Source of the DNA: Clostridium sp. CX1
GTDB lineage: Bacteria > Bacillota > Clostridia > Clostridiales > Clostridiaceae
Length of the DNA: 64,000 nucleotides
Assembly: GCF_025398335.1 (NCBI RefSeq)
Contig: NZ_JAODOO010000009.1
Coordinates: 1-64,000, forward strand
Reading direction: 5' to 3'
The position numbers were made by a program, and so were the translations under genes. The notes beneath the pieces were generated by a model. The model saw only the letters and a list, made by a program, of their open reading frames with translations, did not search any database and was not told the DNA's origin. How positions within the stretch are numbered: position 1 is the stretch's first letter; each line of letters opens with the position of its first letter. This document shows, piece after piece, positions 2,254-9,121 of the stretch.

Positions 2254-3342
2254 ATGAGTTTTAAATTACCAGAATACAAAGCCCCAGACTTTACAAAGGA
2301 GCCTTTTATTTCAGCTCCTAACATAATCACTGAAAAAGTAACAATTAAAGGTGTTGCTCCTGATAAATATCACGCTACTTCTATATATCCTGAATATTTT
2401 AAAATAGATGAAAAGTGGATTTTAGCATCTGAAAGCCGTATGGATTGTGTTGTTGTAGTTAAGGATGATAAAAGTTTAGATATAAAAGAGTTTAGAAATC
2501 TGAACATAGGTGACAACGTAGTATTAGGAAGAAGTGAAAATGCAGAGGATGGCATTTATGTTCATGTAAGTGGTTTTACATATACAGAATCTGAAGAAGA
2601 GCAGTCCTTTGTTTTTAGAACTGGCAGAACTCGCGAAAGCTCTTATTCAAAGGATTATGATAGTCTTTATGAATTACTTAAATACGAAAGAGAAAATGGA
2701 TATATATTGTGGGTTCTAGGCCCTGCTGTTGTCTTTGATCATGATTCTAAAAATGCTATGTCTGCCCTTATAAATGCTGGATATGTAGATACAATTTTTG
2801 CTGGAAATGCACTGGCAACTCATGACTTAGAAGGTTCCATATTAAAAACAGCACTAGGTCAGGATATTTATACTCAACACTCTGTTTTTAATGGCCACTA
2901 TAATCATATAGATGTTATAAATAGAGCTAGGCGTGCAGGTTCTCTAGAAAAATTTATAGAACAGGAAAACATCACAGAAGGAGTAGTTTATTCATGTATT
3001 AAGAACAATGTTCCTTTAGTATTAGCTGGTTCCATTAGAGATGACGGACCTCTTCCTCCTGTTATTGCAAATGTCTATGATGCTCAAGATGCAATGAGAA
3101 CTCATAGTAAAAAAGCTACAACAGTAATATGTTTAGCAACCCAGCTTCATACCATAGCAACAGGTAATATGACTCCTATGTATAAAGTGGAAGAAGATAA
3201 AATTAGACCTGTATACATATATACAGTAGATATTTCTGAATTTGGTGTAAATAAACTTAGAGACAGAGGAAGTCTTGAAGTAACTTCTATTGTTACAAAT
3301 GTACAGGATTTCTTAGTAAATATAAAAAATAACTTAGTATAA
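2254..3342 (+). CDS. TIGR00300-family protein: archaeal-type ornithine cyclodeaminase / LOR-SDH domain
   Basis: The 362-residue product carries the hallmarks of the LOR/SDH C-terminal domain and archaeal ornithine cyclodeaminase (Ocd2) family: the AGNALATHD segment (about 183-191), a GHYNHIDVINRARRAGS segment (about 211-227), the IKNNVPLVLAGSIRDDGPLP stretch (about 249-268) and a C-terminal DRG. Members bind NAD and are linked to ornithine-to-proline conversion. The activity here is inferred from family. The gene is monocistronic with a good GGAGG site 7 nt upstream. The N-terminal 60 residues are more divergent. Alternative: an uncharacterised NAD-dependent amino-acid enzyme. Confidence 0.8.
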   Translation: MSFKLPEYKAPDFTKEPFISAPNIITEKVTIKGVAPDKYHATSIYPEYFKIDEKWILASESRMDCVVVVKDDKSLDIKEFRNLNIGDNVVLGRSENAEDGIYVHVSGFTYTESEEEQSFVFRTGRTRESSYSKDYDSLYELLKYERENGYILWVLGPAVVFDHDSKNAMSALINAGYVDTIFAGNALATHDLEGSILKTALGQDIYTQHSVFNGHYNHIDVINRARRAGSLEKFIEQENITEGVVYSCIKNNVPLVLAGSIRDDGPLPPVIANVYDAQDAMRTHSKKATTVICLATQLHTIATGNMTPMYKVEEDKIRPVYIYTVDISEFGVNKLRDRGSLEVTSIVTNVQDFLVNIKNNLV

Positions 3343-3507: not shown

Positions 3508-4167
3508 ATGCTAAAACGTAACTTAACATCAGAATTAATGTCTAAATTTAATGAAGCTCTTAATAAAATAATGGAATATAAAATGTCAGGTAAGAATGAG
3601 GAAGCCCTCATTGTAATCGATAATACACTAAAAGAAATATTTAGGTTAGGAATGAAATTTTTTAATTCCTTATCTGATGATAACCTTTTGGATATGATAA
3701 AAACTGATGGAACTATAAATACAGATAAATGTATTATGATGGCTAAACTGCTAGAGGAAGAAGCATCTATATTAGAGTTACAGGGAAACTTAGATGATGC
3801 TTTCTATATAGAATTAAAATCTTTGAACTTATTTTTACATGCTTATGAAGGAGACAATGAAAATTGCGACCTGCAGCATCATTTTGAAGATATAGAGATT
3901 ATGATTGAAGAACTGTCTGAATACCGATTACCTTCTTCTCTTCAGAATAGAATAATTGATTATTATGTTAAAACTAATAAATATGACAAGGCTGAAGATA
4001 CTCTTTATGAAATTTTACAGGAAAATGATTTTAGTAATGAGACCATAGAAAAAGGTATTTCTCTTTACGAATTATTACTTAATAAAGATGATAACACTTT
4101 AGAAGAAGGAAATTTATCAAGAGAGGAAGTAGAAGAGTCTCTGTCTATATTAAAGAAAAGGTTATAA
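3508..4167 (+). CDS. DUF6483-type helical repeat protein
   Basis: ATG 3508 is chosen over the upstream in-frame TTG (3493) because GGAGG lies 8 nt before it. The 219-residue acidic protein is almost entirely helical with TPR-like alternation (for example ALIVIDNTLKEIF and YDKAEDTLYEIL), suggesting an interaction scaffold. It resembles the DUF6483 family of clostridia, whose role is unknown. No catalytic motif and no membrane segment. It lies 66 nt upstream of the RseC-like gene and could be co-transcribed with it. Confidence 0.65.
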   Translation: MLKRNLTSELMSKFNEALNKIMEYKMSGKNEEALIVIDNTLKEIFRLGMKFFNSLSDDNLLDMIKTDGTINTDKCIMMAKLLEEEASILELQGNLDDAFYIELKSLNLFLHAYEGDNENCDLQHHFEDIEIMIEELSEYRLPSSLQNRIIDYYVKTNKYDKAEDTLYEILQENDFSNETIEKGISLYELLLNKDDNTLEEGNLSREEVEESLSILKKRL

Positions 4168-4233: not shown

Positions 4234-4659
4234 ATGGTTGAAGTAGGATATGTAGTAGCTTTAAAAAATGATTGTGCCTTGATATCCTTTAAAAGAAAAA
4301 GTGGGTGAGGAGATAACTGCGCCAGTTGTGGCGGTGGATGTGCTCCATCTAGTTCTCTAGTAGATGTAAAAAATACATTAAATGCATCTATTGGTGATGA
4401 GGTACAAGTTGCTCTTGAAACAAAATCCTTTATGAAGATGACTCTATGGGCTTATGGCTTCCCTCTAGTTATGCTGCTAGTGGGTATACTATTTGGAAAC
4501 TATTATTTTAAAAGACTTGGATTTAATAATTACGAACTTTTATCCTTTGCAGTAGGTATGGTTCTTTTAGTTATATCTTACACAATCCTAGGTAAAGTAG
4601 ATAAAAAGGCTTCTAAGGATAGTAACTACGATTTAAAGATGGTTAAGGTTATAAAATAG
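4234..4659 (+). CDS. rseC: RseC/MucC-family membrane protein read through an in-frame TGA (probable selenocysteine)
   Basis: ATG 4234 follows GGAG with 9 nt spacing. The frame stays open to 4659 except for one TGA at 4306-4308 (codon 25). Reading it as Sec gives 141 residues with U25-GDN-C29-AS-C32-GGG-C36, exactly where RseC proteins carry their N-terminal Cys cluster. Two membrane segments follow (about 68-87 and 100-120) and a charged tail, the usual RseC layout. RseC works with Rnf-type complexes in SoxR reduction in proteobacteria; in clostridia the role is unclear. A hairpin with loop AGTTGT begins 12 nt after the TGA (stem CGCC 4320-4323 with GGCG 4330-4333). Alternative: a nonsense-mutated gene. 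Confidence 0.75.
4306..4346 (+). promoter_or_regulatory. Candidate bacterial SECIS element with recoded UGA
   Basis: TGA 4306-4308 is followed by GGAG (4309-4312) that can pair with CTCC (4343-4346), and by an inner 4-bp stem CGCC/GGCG closing the loop AGTTGT at 4324-4329. The loop starts 15 nt after the TGA and has G in its second position, which fits the general bacterial SECIS pattern (short stem, G among the first loop bases, loop 16-37 nt or slightly less after UGA). The fit was judged by eye. Confidence 0.5.
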
Positions 4660-4691
4660 GTTATATTTATTATAAGCTTACAATGACAAAA

Positions 4692-4727
4692 AAGAAGGTG
4701 GAGCTAAAACTCTATCTTCTTTTTTAT
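4692..4727 (+). terminator. Intrinsic terminator after the rseC-like gene
   Basis: AAGAAG (4692-4697) pairs with CTTCTT (4716-4721), with an inner GAG/CTC, and is followed by a T tract on the plus strand. Confidence 0.75.
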
Positions 4728-4772
4728 TATTCATTGTGCAGGAAATTTTATTAAATTCTTTAGCTTATCACC

Positions 4773-5735
4773 TTAAACGTGGATATTACTAATCTCTTTT
4801 ATTTTTCTTTCAGCTTTGCCCTTCTTTCCTCTAAAGGTTATAAAGGAACCTGTTAGGATAAACAATATTCCAAGCATAGTGTTAAAAGGTATGCTTTCCT
4901 GCAGTACAATTAAAGAAAGTATAGGCGCTAGTGCTGGTTTTATGAAAAATACTATAGATGCTGTGGTTGCAGAGGTCTCATCCATGGCAAAGAAATAGAA
5001 TAGATATCCTAATCCTGTTACTACTACTCCAAGATAAATTATTACAAAGATGTTTCCCATTTCTATCCCTTGTATAATTGGAATATTGGATAACACAGAT
5101 AAACCTAATTTCTTATTTACTTGTACCACCGCTGATATATTAGATAAAAGAATTACTATAAGCATTATAAATTCTCCTGCAAAGAACGTAAAACAGTTCA
5201 TAACTATACTCCCATATCTCTCTGAACGCATTTTACCAATTACACTATATAGTGAGAAAGTTACTGCTGCGAGAACAGCCAATACTATCCCTTTAACATC
5301 GCTATTTATTTTGAAAGGATTTAGAATGCAAGCTATACCTACTAAGCTTATAAATAAGGATAGAATCGTAGTTTTCTTAAGCTGCTCTTTTAATAGAAAA
5401 TATGCAAAAGGAATTGTAAATACTGGATTGACACTAAATACTATAGCTACTATTGAAGCTTTAGTATGTACTATGGCAAGTTGGAAAAATGACATACTTA
5501 TTACTACACATAAAAGACCTGTAAAAAGAAAATAACCAATATCCCCTCTATTGAATGAAATTTCCCTTTTCCTTAAATCCTTTATTGCTAACGGAAGCAA
5601 TATAGATGCCCCAATAAAAAATCTTAAAAAGTTCAGCTGAAAAGGATTAATCTCCATTGCTATTAATTTACCGGCTATCTCCATAGTGCTAAACATAACC
5701 GCAGATAAAATAATATAAACATACCCCTTTCTCAT
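4773..5735 (-). CDS. EamA/DMT-family transporter, 10 TM
   Basis: A 320-residue membrane protein with two tandem EamA repeats (about 5-140 and 150-290) and ten hydrophobic segments, ending in a Lys/Glu-rich cytoplasmic tail. DMT-superfamily members export or import small metabolites; the substrate cannot be read from sequence. The start lies behind an AAGGGGGAG site. The gene stands alone and is preceded by about 200 nt of structured leader, which suggests ligand- or attenuation-type control, and that may be the best clue to its substrate. Confidence 0.85.
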   Translation of the reverse strand: MRKGYVYIILSAVMFSTMEIAGKLIAMEINPFQLNFLRFFIGASILLPLAIKDLRKREISFNRGDIGYFLFTGLLCVVISMSFFQLAIVHTKASIVAIVFSVNPVFTIPFAYFLLKEQLKKTTILSLFISLVGIACILNPFKINSDVKGIVLAVLAAVTFSLYSVIGKMRSERYGSIVMNCFTFFAGEFIMLIVILLSNISAVVQVNKKLGLSVLSNIPIIQGIEMGNIFVIIYLGVVVTGLGYLFYFFAMDETSATTASIVFFIKPALAPILSLIVLQESIPFNTMLGILFILTGSFITFRGKKGKAERKIKEISNIHV

Positions 5736-5749
5736 AATTGGCTCCCCCT

Positions 5750-5945
5750 TAATTTAAATAAAAATGGCAAAATAAAACCCCACCATGCCGTATTATGAGT
5801 TATTCTTGAACCCGCTCTCGCAGGTGGAAATCTCCTTTTTGATTCTTGTTCCAGAAAATTAAGTTCCAGCATCATTCCACAAAAAGAGTCCGATTTCCTT
5901 TCAAAAACTGTTGGGTCAATATGAACCCACTCCACGTACATGGTA
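5750..5945 (-). promoter_or_regulatory. Structured 5' leader of the EamA transporter (riboswitch candidate)
   Basis: Reading the minus strand, this leader has a TGGGT/ACCCA hairpin near its start, a long-range GAAATC/GATTTC pairing that encloses two CTGGAAC copies, then an ACCTGC-GAGA-GCGGGT hairpin, and GGCA/TGCC flanking a GTGGGGTTTTATTTT tract just before the ribosome site. GC content is well above the local average. I tested it mentally against T-box, SAM, TPP, lysine, guanidine and purine consensus motifs and found no match. A 69-codon open frame crosses it but lacks a ribosome site. Confidence 0.45.
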
Positions 5946-6042
5946 GGAATATTTATTTTTTATATTTCTTTAATTGTATTATACTACATTTTTTAGAAAT
6001 TTAATATAATATTTTCAGAATTATTTGCAATTTTGCCATAGG

Positions 6043-7818
6043 TTATTTGTTTAAAGATATACCAAGTTCCTTCAATTGTGCTTCTTCTACAACACTTGGA
6101 GCTTCTGTTAAAGGACAGAAAGCATTCTGATTCTTAGGGAATGCAACAACATCCTTTATGTTATCTGTTCCTGCAAGGAACATAACGATTCTATCAAAAC
6201 CATAAGCAAGTCCGCCGTGTGGTGGTGGTCCAAATTTGAATGCTTCTAGTAAGAAACCAAAACTTTCCCAAGCTCTTTCTTGAGTAAAGCCTAACACCTT
6301 AAACATTCTTTCTTGAAGTTTTGTATCATGTATTCTAATACTTCCTCCTCCAAGCTCTTCACCATTTAATACTATGTCATAAGCTTTTGCTCTAACTCTT
6401 CCTGGATCACTTTCTAAATACTGAATATCTTCATCCATAGGCATTGTAAATGGATGGTGCTCTGCTTGGAATCTCTTTTCTTCTTCATTATATGAAACAA
6501 GCGGGAATTCTGTTATCCATACAAATCTAAACTCATTGTTATTTTCTAGGATTCCTAATTCTTTAGCTAAGTGTAGTCTTAAGGCACCAAGACTTTGGAA
6601 AACAACAGAGTTTTTATCTGCTACTATTAAGATTAAATCTCCAACTTTAGCTTCCATTTTATCTAGTATAGCTTGAGTTTGCTCTTCTGTTAAGAACTTA
6701 CCTATAGATGACTTAACTCCATCCTCTTTATAAGCTATCCATGCTAAGCCCTTAGCTCCGTAAGTTTTAACAAAGTCAACTAACTTATCAACTTGCTTTC
6801 TTCCCATAGCTGCACTGCCTTCAGCTTTTATAGCTCTTACTGAACCATTGTTTGAGAGTGCATCTTGGAACACTTTAAAGTCTACATCTTTAACAGCTTC
6901 AGTTAAATCATTTATCTCCATACCAAATCTTAAGTCTGGCTTATCGGAGCCATACTTTTCCATAGCTGTTTTGTATGGCATTCTCTCTATCGGAAGCTTA
7001 ACATCTACATTAGCTATTTCTTTAAATACTTTTTGGATTAATCTTTCATTTAATTCTATTACATCGTCTACTTCAACAAAAGATAATTCCATATCTATTT
7101 GTGTAAATTCTGGCTGTCTATTTGCTCTTAAGTCCTCATCTCTAAAACACTTTGCTATCTGGAAGTATCTATCATAACCTGATACCATTAAAAGCTGCTT
7201 AAATAGCTGTGGTGATTGAGGAAGTGCATAAAACATTCCTGGATAGTTTCTGCTCGGTACAAGATAATCTCTTGCTCCCTCTGGACTGCTATTTGCAAGT
7301 ACAGGTGTTTCTACTTCTAAGAATCCATTTTCATCTAGAAAATCTCTAACAATTTTAGCTGCTTTGTGTCTTGTCATGAAAATTCTCTGCATATCTGGTC
7401 TTCTTAAATCTAAATATCTGTATTTTAATCTTATATTTTCAGCTGCATCTAAATTTTCTTTTATGTATATAGGTGGTGTTTCTGATTCTGATAACACTTT
7501 TATATACTCACCTTTTAACTCTACCATTCCTGTTGGAAGCTCTGAATTCGGAGCTTCTCTTTTAACTATTGTTCCAGTAACTGCTATACAGTACTCGGAT
7601 TTAACTCCATCAGCTTTATCAAAAGCCTCTTTATTTATTTCTTCACCAAATACTACTTGAAGTATACCTGTTCTGTCTCTTAAATCAACAAATATAAGTC
7701 CTCCAAGATTTCTTTTTCTTTGAACCCATCCCATAACTGTAACCTTGTTATCAATATGTGTTTCTCTTAACTCACCACACATTATGGTTCTTTTAAGTCC
7801 CTTTAATGCTTCTCCCAT
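6043..7818 (-). CDS. aspS: Aspartyl-tRNA synthetase
   Basis: A 591-residue class II synthetase of bacterial type: OB-fold anticodon-binding domain (about 15-110), catalytic core with FRDEDLRANRQPEFTQ motif 2 (about 210-225), bacterial GAD insertion (about 290-420) and motif 3 GLAYGFDRI near the C-terminus. It charges tRNA-Asp. ATG 7818 is chosen because GGAGG lies 8 nt upstream; the TTG at 7833 overlaps that site. hisS ends 17 nt upstream, the common clostridial hisS-aspS pair. Whether it also charges tRNA-Asn was not determined. Confidence 0.97.
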   Translation of the reverse strand: MGEALKGLKRTIMCGELRETHIDNKVTVMGWVQRKRNLGGLIFVDLRDRTGILQVVFGEEINKEAFDKADGVKSEYCIAVTGTIVKREAPNSELPTGMVELKGEYIKVLSESETPPIYIKENLDAAENIRLKYRYLDLRRPDMQRIFMTRHKAAKIVRDFLDENGFLEVETPVLANSSPEGARDYLVPSRNYPGMFYALPQSPQLFKQLLMVSGYDRYFQIAKCFRDEDLRANRQPEFTQIDMELSFVEVDDVIELNERLIQKVFKEIANVDVKLPIERMPYKTAMEKYGSDKPDLRFGMEINDLTEAVKDVDFKVFQDALSNNGSVRAIKAEGSAAMGRKQVDKLVDFVKTYGAKGLAWIAYKEDGVKSSIGKFLTEEQTQAILDKMEAKVGDLILIVADKNSVVFQSLGALRLHLAKELGILENNNEFRFVWITEFPLVSYNEEEKRFQAEHHPFTMPMDEDIQYLESDPGRVRAKAYDIVLNGEELGGGSIRIHDTKLQERMFKVLGFTQERAWESFGFLLEAFKFGPPPHGGLAYGFDRIVMFLAGTDNIKDVVAFPKNQNAFCPLTEAPSVVEEAQLKELGISLNK

Positions 7819-7835
7819 GTGTAACTCCTCCAACC

Positions 7836-9080
7836 TTATATTAATTCTGCTATACTATCTAAATCTTTTAGATTTATTTCAAATTGCTCTCCATCACTCA
7901 TTCTCTTCAGTTTAGCTATACCGGTTTGTAATTCATTTTCTCCAAGAACAATGGTGAATCTAGCATCTATTTTGTTTGCATATTTCATAGCTGCTTTTAC
8001 ACTTCTATTCATATGGTCACAATCACATTTTATATTTCTTTCTCTTAATCTATTGATTAAAGTTAAAGCCTCTACCTTTGACTCATCTCCCATAGCTGCT
8101 ACATATAAATCTATGTAACTTTCTTTAGGAATTTCAATGCCATTTTCTTCTAAAGTTAAAATAGTTCTCTCTATTCCCATTCCAAAGCCCATAGCTGGCA
8201 TTGATGGTCCTCCAACCTCTTCTATAAGATAATCGTATCTTCCGCCACCGCAAATGGTTATTCCGTTATTAATTATCTCAAATACAGTTTTACTATAATA
8301 ATCTAAACCTCTTACTATTAAAGGATCTACTTTATATTCAATTTCTAGAGCTGTTAGGTATTTCTTTAACTTCTCAAAATGATCGTTGCAATCATCGCAT
8401 AAATAGTCAAGTATTAAAGGAGCCCCTTTAACTATTTCCTTACAGCTTTTCACCTTACAGTCTAAAGTTCTCATAGGATTTTTTTCAAATCTTGTTTTAC
8501 AAGTTTCACAGAAATCATCATAGTTTTTTGATAAAAACTGCTTTAAGGCTTCATTATATTTCTTTCTGCACTCTGGGCATCCTATGCTATTTATATTAAG
8601 CTCTATACCCTTAACGCCAAGCTCTTTATATACTCTCATAGCAAGGCTTATAATTTCAGCATCTACAGAAGCTTCTTGAGCTCCAAATACCTCCACACCA
8701 AATTGATGATGCTCTCTTAACCTTCCCTTTTGAACATTCTCATATCTTAGCACTGGAGTAAAGTAGTAAAGTTTTGTTGGTTGAGCTTCATTGTATAGAC
8801 TGCTCTCAACAAAAGCTCTTACTGCTGGAGATGTTCCTTCAGGCTTAAGAGTTATACTTCTTCCTGCCTTGTCGTTAAAGGTGTACATCTCCTTTTGAAC
8901 TACATCAGTAGTTTCTCCAACTCCTCTTTCAAAAAGCTCTGTGTGTTCAAACACAGGAGTTCTAATTTCTCTACATCCAAAAGATGCAGATATTTTTCTA
9001 AACTTATCCTCTAAATATTGCCACTTGTATACATCCCCAGGTAATACATCCTTAGTACCTTTTGGTGCTTGTATAGCCAT
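7836..9080 (-). CDS. hisS: Histidyl-tRNA synthetase
   Basis: A 414-residue class II synthetase. Motif 2 ([18 protein letters not shown], about 110-127), the histidine-binding [12 protein letters not shown] segment (about 257-268) and the motif 3 region GMGIERTI (about 305-312) are clear. The C-terminal anticodon domain begins near 325. The start ATG is preceded by AGGGAGG; the frame's earlier GTG (9104) lies before that site and is rejected. hisS is the first of the hisS-aspS pair and follows hemZ by 41 nt. Confidence 0.97.
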
Positions 9081-9121
9081 TTTTCTTCCTCCCTCTTCTT
9101 TCACTTATCGTAAGTTGTTGA

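What the first reader, a model, noticed from the sequence alone, without database searches (positions are those of the whole stretch)
4234..4659. RseC-family gene with an in-frame TGA at a redox-Cys position: probable selenoprotein
Seen: the only stop in a 142-codon frame is TGA at codon 25. It aligns with the first Cys of the RseC cluster (U-GDN-C-AS-C-GGG-C), sequence after it stays in-frame and conserved in type, and a G-containing hairpin loop lies 15 nt downstream. Known: bacterial Sec is inserted where Cys would stand, with a SECIS right after UGA. Inferred: this is a Sec-containing membrane redox protein. A standard gene caller would report only a 75-aa fragment from 4432.
Basis: partly seen in the sequence, partly recalled or inferred. 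Interest (0 to 1): 0.75.

Follow-up and report, generated by a model that had tools for sequence, protein, structure and literature searches.

The report
Selenocysteine version of membrane protein RseC
A small bacterial membrane protein of the RseC family very probably contains the rare amino acid selenocysteine, encoded by what looks like a stop codon, in place of its first metal- or redox-active cysteine; the same swap turns up in five other sampled genomes, and this family is missing from the selenoprotein catalogues we read.

Summary
Frame 4234-4659 is an RseC_MucC (PF04246) gene whose only internal stop is TGA at codon 25 (4306-4308). The genome carries selD, selA, selB and tRNA-Sec in one cluster, and its SelD has its own in-frame TGA. 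In 204 aligned homologue segments the codon-25 column holds Cys in 198 and TGA in 6, nothing else. The six come from four genera in three families; the tree needs at least 4 Cys/Sec changes. All six genomes have selA. A SECIS-like hairpin at the right spacing is found in 6 of 6 TGA copies and 44 of 195 Cys copies, though hairpin energy alone does not separate them. In the two TGA lineages tested, the part after the TGA is under purifying selection. U25 aligns with E. coli RseC Cys26, one of three cysteines reported to bind an oxygen-sensitive [4Fe-4S] cluster (PMC11729352). RseC is absent from the May 2026 table of 119 prokaryotic selenoprotein families. Verdict: a real, apparently unreported selenoprotein family, with Sec replacing a probable Fe-S ligand. 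It is not the Rnf-linked RseC. What Sec does is inferred.

The parts
4234..4659 (+). Sec-containing RseC-family gene, 141 residues with UGA read as Sec, terminal TAG
   Evidence: translation; PF04246 at 7.2e-28; alignment with Cys homologues 35-52% identical
4306..4308 (+). in-frame TGA, codon 25, read as selenocysteine
   Evidence: 198 Cys and 6 TGA of 204 homologue segments at this column; aligns with E. coli RseC Cys26
4317..4337 (+). upper stem-loop of the SECIS-like hairpin, apical loop GUUG at 4325-4328, 16 nt from the UGA; lower pairing extends over about 4307-4349
   Evidence: constraints from PMC13188914 section 5
4318..4341 (+). codons of Cys29, Cys32 and Cys36, the rest of the cluster U25-x3-C29-x2-C32-x3-C36
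   Evidence: positions 25, 29, 32 and 36 are Cys (or Sec at 25) in all 12 rows of alignment A1
4432..4659 (+). 75-aa fragment (membrane part) that a standard caller would probably report
   Evidence: ORF list

Best explanation
The gene encodes a selenocysteine-containing RseC-family protein: an N-terminal domain (cytoplasmic in E. coli) with a U-x3-C-x2-C-x3-C cluster, then two membrane helices. During translation SelB with Sec-tRNA-Sec reads UGA 4306-4308 with the help of the hairpin just 3' of it, giving a full 141-residue protein. I infer that the Sec is a ligand of, or redox partner at, an oxygen-sensitive Fe-S (or related metal) centre facing the cytoplasm, used in electron transfer to or upkeep of membrane redox partners. 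Shown by sequence: family, frame, Cys/Sec pairing, recurrence, machinery, hairpin, and purifying selection after the UGA in two related TGA lineages. Inferred: insertion of Sec in the cell, and what the Sec does.
For: PF04246 match through the TGA. selD-selA-selB-tRNA-Sec cluster with a Sec-type SelD. 204 homologue segments: 198 Cys, 6 TGA, no other residue and no gap at this column, although the genome search reads through any stop anywhere in the match. The six TGA genomes fall in four genera of three families: G000 (f1); G323 and G368 (f58, g139); G609 and G610 (f58, g267); G997 (f134). Both f58 genera also hold Cys species. The tree needs 6 changes, at least 4 forced by supported branches. 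SelA in 6 of 6 TGA genomes. SECIS rule (G followed by G or U within the first two loop positions, loop 3-6, spacing 16-37, stem at least 4, E <= -1): 6 of 6 TGA copies versus 44 of 195 Cys copies, Fisher p = 2e-4. Positive control: of 5 SelD genes with TGA found in the fetched flanks, 4 pass. After the UGA, G610 against its Cys sister G608: dN 0.096, dS 1.03; G323 against G368 (both TGA): dN 0.333, dS 1.52; two Cys-Cys pairs gave 0.297 and 1.47, and 0.419 and 0.96.
Against: No protein or selenium measurement. In the window's own genus (six other genomes) and family (206 and 200 genomes searched) no second TGA copy was seen, so the window copy is a single case in its lineage, and the selection test could not be made on it. 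SelA is common anyway (30 of 37 and about 50 of 79 Cys-copy genomes), so 6 of 6 is no significant association. A hairpin test by energy did not separate TGA from Cys copies: with a -7.5 kcal/mol limit 1 of 5 TGA copies (the window's) and 27 of 128 Cys copies passed. The -1 limit of the later rule was set after seeing the weakest TGA copy; at -2 it is 5 of 6 versus 40 of 195, p = 0.002, and copies within a genus are not independent. G000's own SelD fails the rule. The Fe-S role comes from E. [quoted passage not shown]
Confidence: 0.93

Rival explanations
1. Nonsense mutation or sequencing error: a TGT/TGC Cys codon turned into TGA in this one genome, and the gene is dead or misread.
For: One base separates TGA from TGY; no close strain was available to confirm it; the sister genomes of the genus lack this copy.
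Against: The same column carries TGA in five other genomes of three other genera, each with that one internal stop only; the downstream frame is under purifying selection in the two TGA lineages tested; all six have selA; a rule-satisfying hairpin is present in all six.
Confidence: 0.05
2. UGA is read through as Cys or Trp by another tRNA, not as Sec.
For: The tools cannot see the amino acid; Cys is what stands in the relatives.
Against: A complete Sec system with a tRNA-Sec above the Rfam cut-off is present, and TGA ends other frames; I know of no such decoding in these lineages (recalled).
Confidence: 0.01
3. The 75-aa membrane fragment from 4432 is the real product.
For: It is the ORF a mechanical caller lists.
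Against: The ATG at 4234 is preceded by AGGAG, and the N-terminal Cys domain aligns from the first residue with the Cys homologues, 35-52% identical.
Confidence: 0.01
4. Sec is real, but works as a thiol/selenol exchange residue (Sec-S-Cys pair) and not as a metal ligand.
For: Many catalogued selenoproteins are homologous to thiol oxidoreductases or have UxxC or CxxU motifs (PMC13188914, section 7); in E. coli two of the three cysteines are enough for SoxR reduction (PMC11729352).
Against: Three or four clustered Cys, with a cluster-like absorbance at 420 nm after reconstitution of E. coli RseC's N-terminal domain, point to a cluster (PMC11729352).
Confidence: 0.45

Closest known systems
RseC of E. 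coli (SoxR-reducing system), PF04246
   Same: Same family, size class, N-terminal Cys cluster and hydrophobic second half; U25 aligns with Cys26, the first of the conserved CX2CX5C
   Different: Sec in place of that Cys; spacing U-x3-C-x2-C-x3-C; no rpoE-rseAB neighbours
Rnf-linked RseC of clostridia (C. ljungdahlii rseC, PMC9124969)
   Same: Same Pfam family; G000 also has such a copy beside a gene with RnfC_N and Complex1_51K domains
   Different: That copy is all-Cys (HGDCKNCGAC) and only 22% identical to the window protein; the window copy lies near aspS and hisS, not rnf
Cys-containing RseC of Clostridium homopropionicum, C. ganghwense, C. bovifaecis and C. aestuarii
   Same: 49-52% identical over the full length, Cys at codon 25
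   Different: Cys, not Sec
Selenoproteins with related motifs: GrdB (UxxCxxC), Fe-S cluster domain protein NF005503 (UxxC), CopZ-like 2Fe-2S forms (PMC13188914)
   Same: Sec at the first position of a U-x2-C-x2-C motif (as in the TGA copies of G323, G368, G609, G610 and G997), or Sec in an Fe-S protein
   Different: Unrelated families; soluble proteins as far as I know (recalled)

Membership tests
RseC_MucC (PF04246) | match to the profile above its curated cut-off | tested here: met
   97.5 bits against a cut-off of 24.4, residues 7-137
RseC_MucC (PF04246) | conserved Cys cluster CX2CX5C or similar | tested here: met
   U25, C29, C32, C36; column 25 aligned with E. coli Cys26
RseC_MucC (PF04246) | two transmembrane helices with cytoplasmic N-terminus | not tested
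   two long hydrophobic stretches are visible by eye in the second half; topology is from E. coli (PMC11729352); the structure job was never accepted
E. coli-type RseC (NF008115 equivalog) | score above the NCBIfam cut-off | tested here: not met
   18.1 bits against 184
Bacterial selenoprotein | Sec machinery (SelA, SelB, SelD, tRNA-Sec) in the genome | tested here: met
Bacterial selenoprotein | UGA aligned with Cys in homologues, conservation on both sides | tested here: met
Bacterial selenoprotein | bSECIS hairpin: loop 3-9 nt, stem 4-16 bp, G in first two loop positions, spacing 16-37, MFE <= -7.5 (PMC13188914) | tested here: met
   window gene: loop GUUG, spacing 16, -16.7 kcal/mol for 45 nt. 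Other TGA copies: G997 fits (loop GGA, spacing 24, -15.5); G323 fits over 45 nt (-8.3); G609 and G610 miss the limit over 45 nt (-6.4, -5.8); in G368 the best fold over 45 nt (-7.6) is another hairpin
Bacterial selenoprotein | selenium shown in the protein | not testable with these tools
   -

The most novel reading that the evidence does not exclude
RseC is a hitherto unlisted selenoprotein family in which Sec replaces a cysteine that ligates an oxygen-sensitive Fe-S cluster on the cytoplasmic face of a membrane protein: a natural selenium-ligated cluster, gained or lost repeatedly within the Firmicutes.
Probability: 0.4. Interest if true: 0.78.

Novelty: new variant of a known kind. Interest (0 to 1): 0.62.

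Why it matters
It adds a family to the selenoprotein catalogue, in a membrane redox protein common among the anaerobes sampled here and of unsettled biochemistry. The Sec/Cys exchange marks the first Cys of the cluster as a residue that matters chemically, which gives a handle on what RseC does. Standard annotation would probably miss it, since the gene appears as a fragment. If Sec is a cluster ligand, it offers natural pairs of Se- and S-ligated homologues (for example G610 and G608, 85% identical) for comparing cluster chemistry.

Tried and rejected
Rfam found no SECIS family at the site (two hits far below their cut-offs). Scanning viral contigs for relatives gave none, and plasmids none. 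The scan of named genomes used a pattern that demands Cys at codon 25, so it could only name Cys relatives, not TGA ones; 84 of 118 stretches were relatives and the best 80 were kept. SelA presence as a statistical association was rejected as non-significant: Cys-copy genomes have it in 30 of 37 and in 53 of 79 by the tool's tally, about 50 if three weak hits are left out. Hairpin energy as a separator was rejected: 1 of 5 TGA copies and 27 of 128 Cys copies reach -7.5 kcal/mol. A GUU apical loop looked exclusive to TGA copies (4 of 5 against 0 of 128 at E <= -2), but it was chosen after looking, and the G997 copy has GGA, so I do not rely on it. No solved structure of a relative was found (best E 0.29). 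Other rows with internal stops were weak or explained: G097:C61 (E 1e-4, TAA), G075:C1 (E 3.1e-4, 3 TGA and 2 TAA), and G096:C2 (a TAA, none; probably the terminal stop, not checked). Match lists were truncated, so six TGA copies is a lower bound.

Full report
What is there. Frame 4234-4659 (+) holds 141 codons and a TAG, with one internal stop, TGA, at codon 25 (4306-4308). Read through, it matches PF04246 RseC_MucC over residues 7-137 (7.2e-28). It has AGGAG before its ATG. It follows a DUF6483 gene (3508-4164) and a gene with ArgZ-like C-terminal domains (2254-3339) on the same strand, and faces an EamA transporter gene, aspS and hisS on the other strand. In the 64 kb no other frame has at least 20 codons from ATG to a TGA and at least 100 open codons after it.

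Sec machinery. The genome has selD, selA, selB and a tRNA-Sec with anticodon tca in that order on contig C10 (SelD rests on AIRS domains plus the Sec motif). Its SelD has a TGA in SRTAG*AAKIG, so the cell is predicted to make at least one other selenoprotein.

Cys/Sec pairing. The closest Cys homologues (G140, G141, G138, G137, G190, G191 and others, 45-52% identical; named ones include Clostridium homopropionicum, C. ganghwense, C. bovifaecis and C. aestuarii) read KSGCGDNCASCKGGC or similar where the window reads KSG*GDNCASCGGGC. Surveys with PF04246 or the protein covered 206 genomes (80 with a match), 391 (181), 200 (77), 71 (65), 393 (187), 22 (21) and 398 (170); these sets overlap and some match lists were cut. 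They gave TGA copies in G000, G323, G368, G609, G610 and G997. Read through, all six have TGA at the first Cys of the cluster: RQSA*ASCGKC, RQSA*AKCGKC, RMSA*AKCNKC (twice), RHSA*AHCGAC, and the window. Aligning 204 distinct homologue segments from the loci then held (pieces under 80 residues or under 30 bits dropped), the column is Cys in 198 and TGA in 6, with no gap and no other residue. The stop could have appeared anywhere along about 130 codons, since the search reads through every stop, so the coincidence at one column is strong.

Recurrence. On a tree of 160 rows with that column left out (Cys rows at 80% identity or more to a kept row, or under 105 residues, dropped), the six TGA rows need 6 changes, at least 4 forced by supported branches (few columns, quick method). 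The six come from four genera in three families. G609 and G610 have a Cys sister G608, 85% identical to G610; G323 and G368 have Cys congeners G346, G388, G477, G614, G615 and G616 (G617 of the same genus showed no internal stop but was not translated). Direction (Cys to Sec or back) is not settled.

Selection after the UGA. G610 (TGA) against G608 (Cys): dN 0.096, dS 1.03 in 119 codons after the UGA. G323 against G368, both TGA: dN 0.333, dS 1.52. Two Cys-Cys pairs of the same genus: dN 0.297, dS 1.47 and dN 0.419, dS 0.96. The downstream part is therefore kept as protein in these two TGA lineages. dS values are near saturation and rough; G609, G997 and the window gene itself were not tested.

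Hairpin. The published bacterial model asks for a loop of 3-9 nt, a stem of 4-16 bp, a G in the first two loop positions, spacing 16-37 nt and MFE at most -7.5 kcal/mol (PMC13188914, section 5). The window has UGA, 16 nt, loop GUUG, -16.7 kcal/mol for 45 nt. Energy alone is not remarkable (z -1.94, 8 of 200 shuffles), and a constrained-energy test did not separate the classes: at -7.5 kcal/mol 1 of 5 TGA copies (the window's) and 27 of 128 Cys copies passed. A rule on the hairpin itself (G then G or U, loop 3-6, stem at least 4, spacing 16-37, E <= -1) is met by 6 of 6 TGA copies and 44 of 195 Cys copies, p = 2e-4; at E <= -2 by 5 of 6 and 40 of 195, p = 0.002. Copies within a genus are not independent, and the -1 limit was set after seeing the weakest copy. 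The Cys sisters G346, G388, G477, G614, G615 and G616 had no such hairpin, and G608 a weak one. G609 and G610 miss the -7.5 limit over 45 nt (-6.4 and -5.8). As a positive control, of 5 SelD genes with TGA found in the fetched flanks 4 pass; the window genome's own SelD does not, so the rule is imperfect.

SelA. All six TGA genomes have SelA (5 of 5, G997). So do 30 of 37 other genomes and 53 of 79 (about 50 without three weak hits; the 80 genomes were the first 80 of a longer list of RseC-positive genomes). That meets the requirement but is no significant association.

What it does. U25 aligns with Cys26 of E. coli RseC. In E. coli, Cys26, Cys29 and Cys35 are reported to form an oxygen-sensitive cluster with a [4Fe-4S]-like spectrum in the isolated N-terminal domain; [quoted passage not shown] In C. 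ljungdahlii the Rnf-linked rseC is needed for autotrophy (PMC9124969, passages). G000 has such a copy separately, all-Cys, beside a gene with RnfC_N and Complex1_51K domains. The window copy belongs to another branch, in which aspS is a common neighbour: 59 loci carry an AspS match within the fetched flank, including TGA loci L096, L097 and L254 but not L134 and L135; the number of loci scanned was not printed. I commit to a membrane-anchored Fe-S or related redox protein whose first ligand position is Sec, and rate cluster ligation against simple Sec-Cys exchange at roughly even odds.

Novelty. The May 2026 review lists 119 families (table read through; part 3 of that section not read) with no RseC, MucC or PF04246 entry; a word search of its text for RseC, MucC, sigma, SoxR and Rnf gave none. 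The 2022 table (PMC9312934, section 13) and the nine families of deep-Sep (PMC12013277, passages) lack it too. Library searches for RseC with selenoprotein, selenocysteine or as 'RseC family' gave nothing relevant (listings only), nor did one for selenoprotein, selenocysteine and SoxR. NCBIfam release 20.0 has no model above cut-off for the protein. Haft and Gwadz 2023 is not held and was not read. NCBI records bearing U could not be searched, so an annotated but unpublished RseC selenoprotein may exist.

Noticed in passing
window 5773-5952 (-): 6S RNA (RF00013, 73.7 bits) between aspS and the EamA transporter gene.
   Followed up: no
L002 6580-7572 (G000 contig C10): SelD with in-frame TGA at the usual Sec site (SRTAG*AAKIG); its downstream sequence does not satisfy the SECIS hairpin rule that four other SelD genes meet.
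   Followed up: partly
L003 (G000 contig C34 25114-28494): Second RseC of the same genome, all-Cys, beside an RnfC_N/Complex1_51K gene.
   Followed up: partly
unnamed relatives, e.g. G014:C1:2112984-2113259, G094:C1:1805155-1805352: Short matches to only the membrane half of PF04246 (profile positions about 34-124) occur in genomes that also hold a full RseC.
   Followed up: no
window 4234-9104: rseC lies near aspS and hisS as in many relatives, but with opposite orientation and an EamA gene and 6S RNA between them, suggesting a rearranged ancestral hisS-aspS-rseC order.
   Followed up: partly
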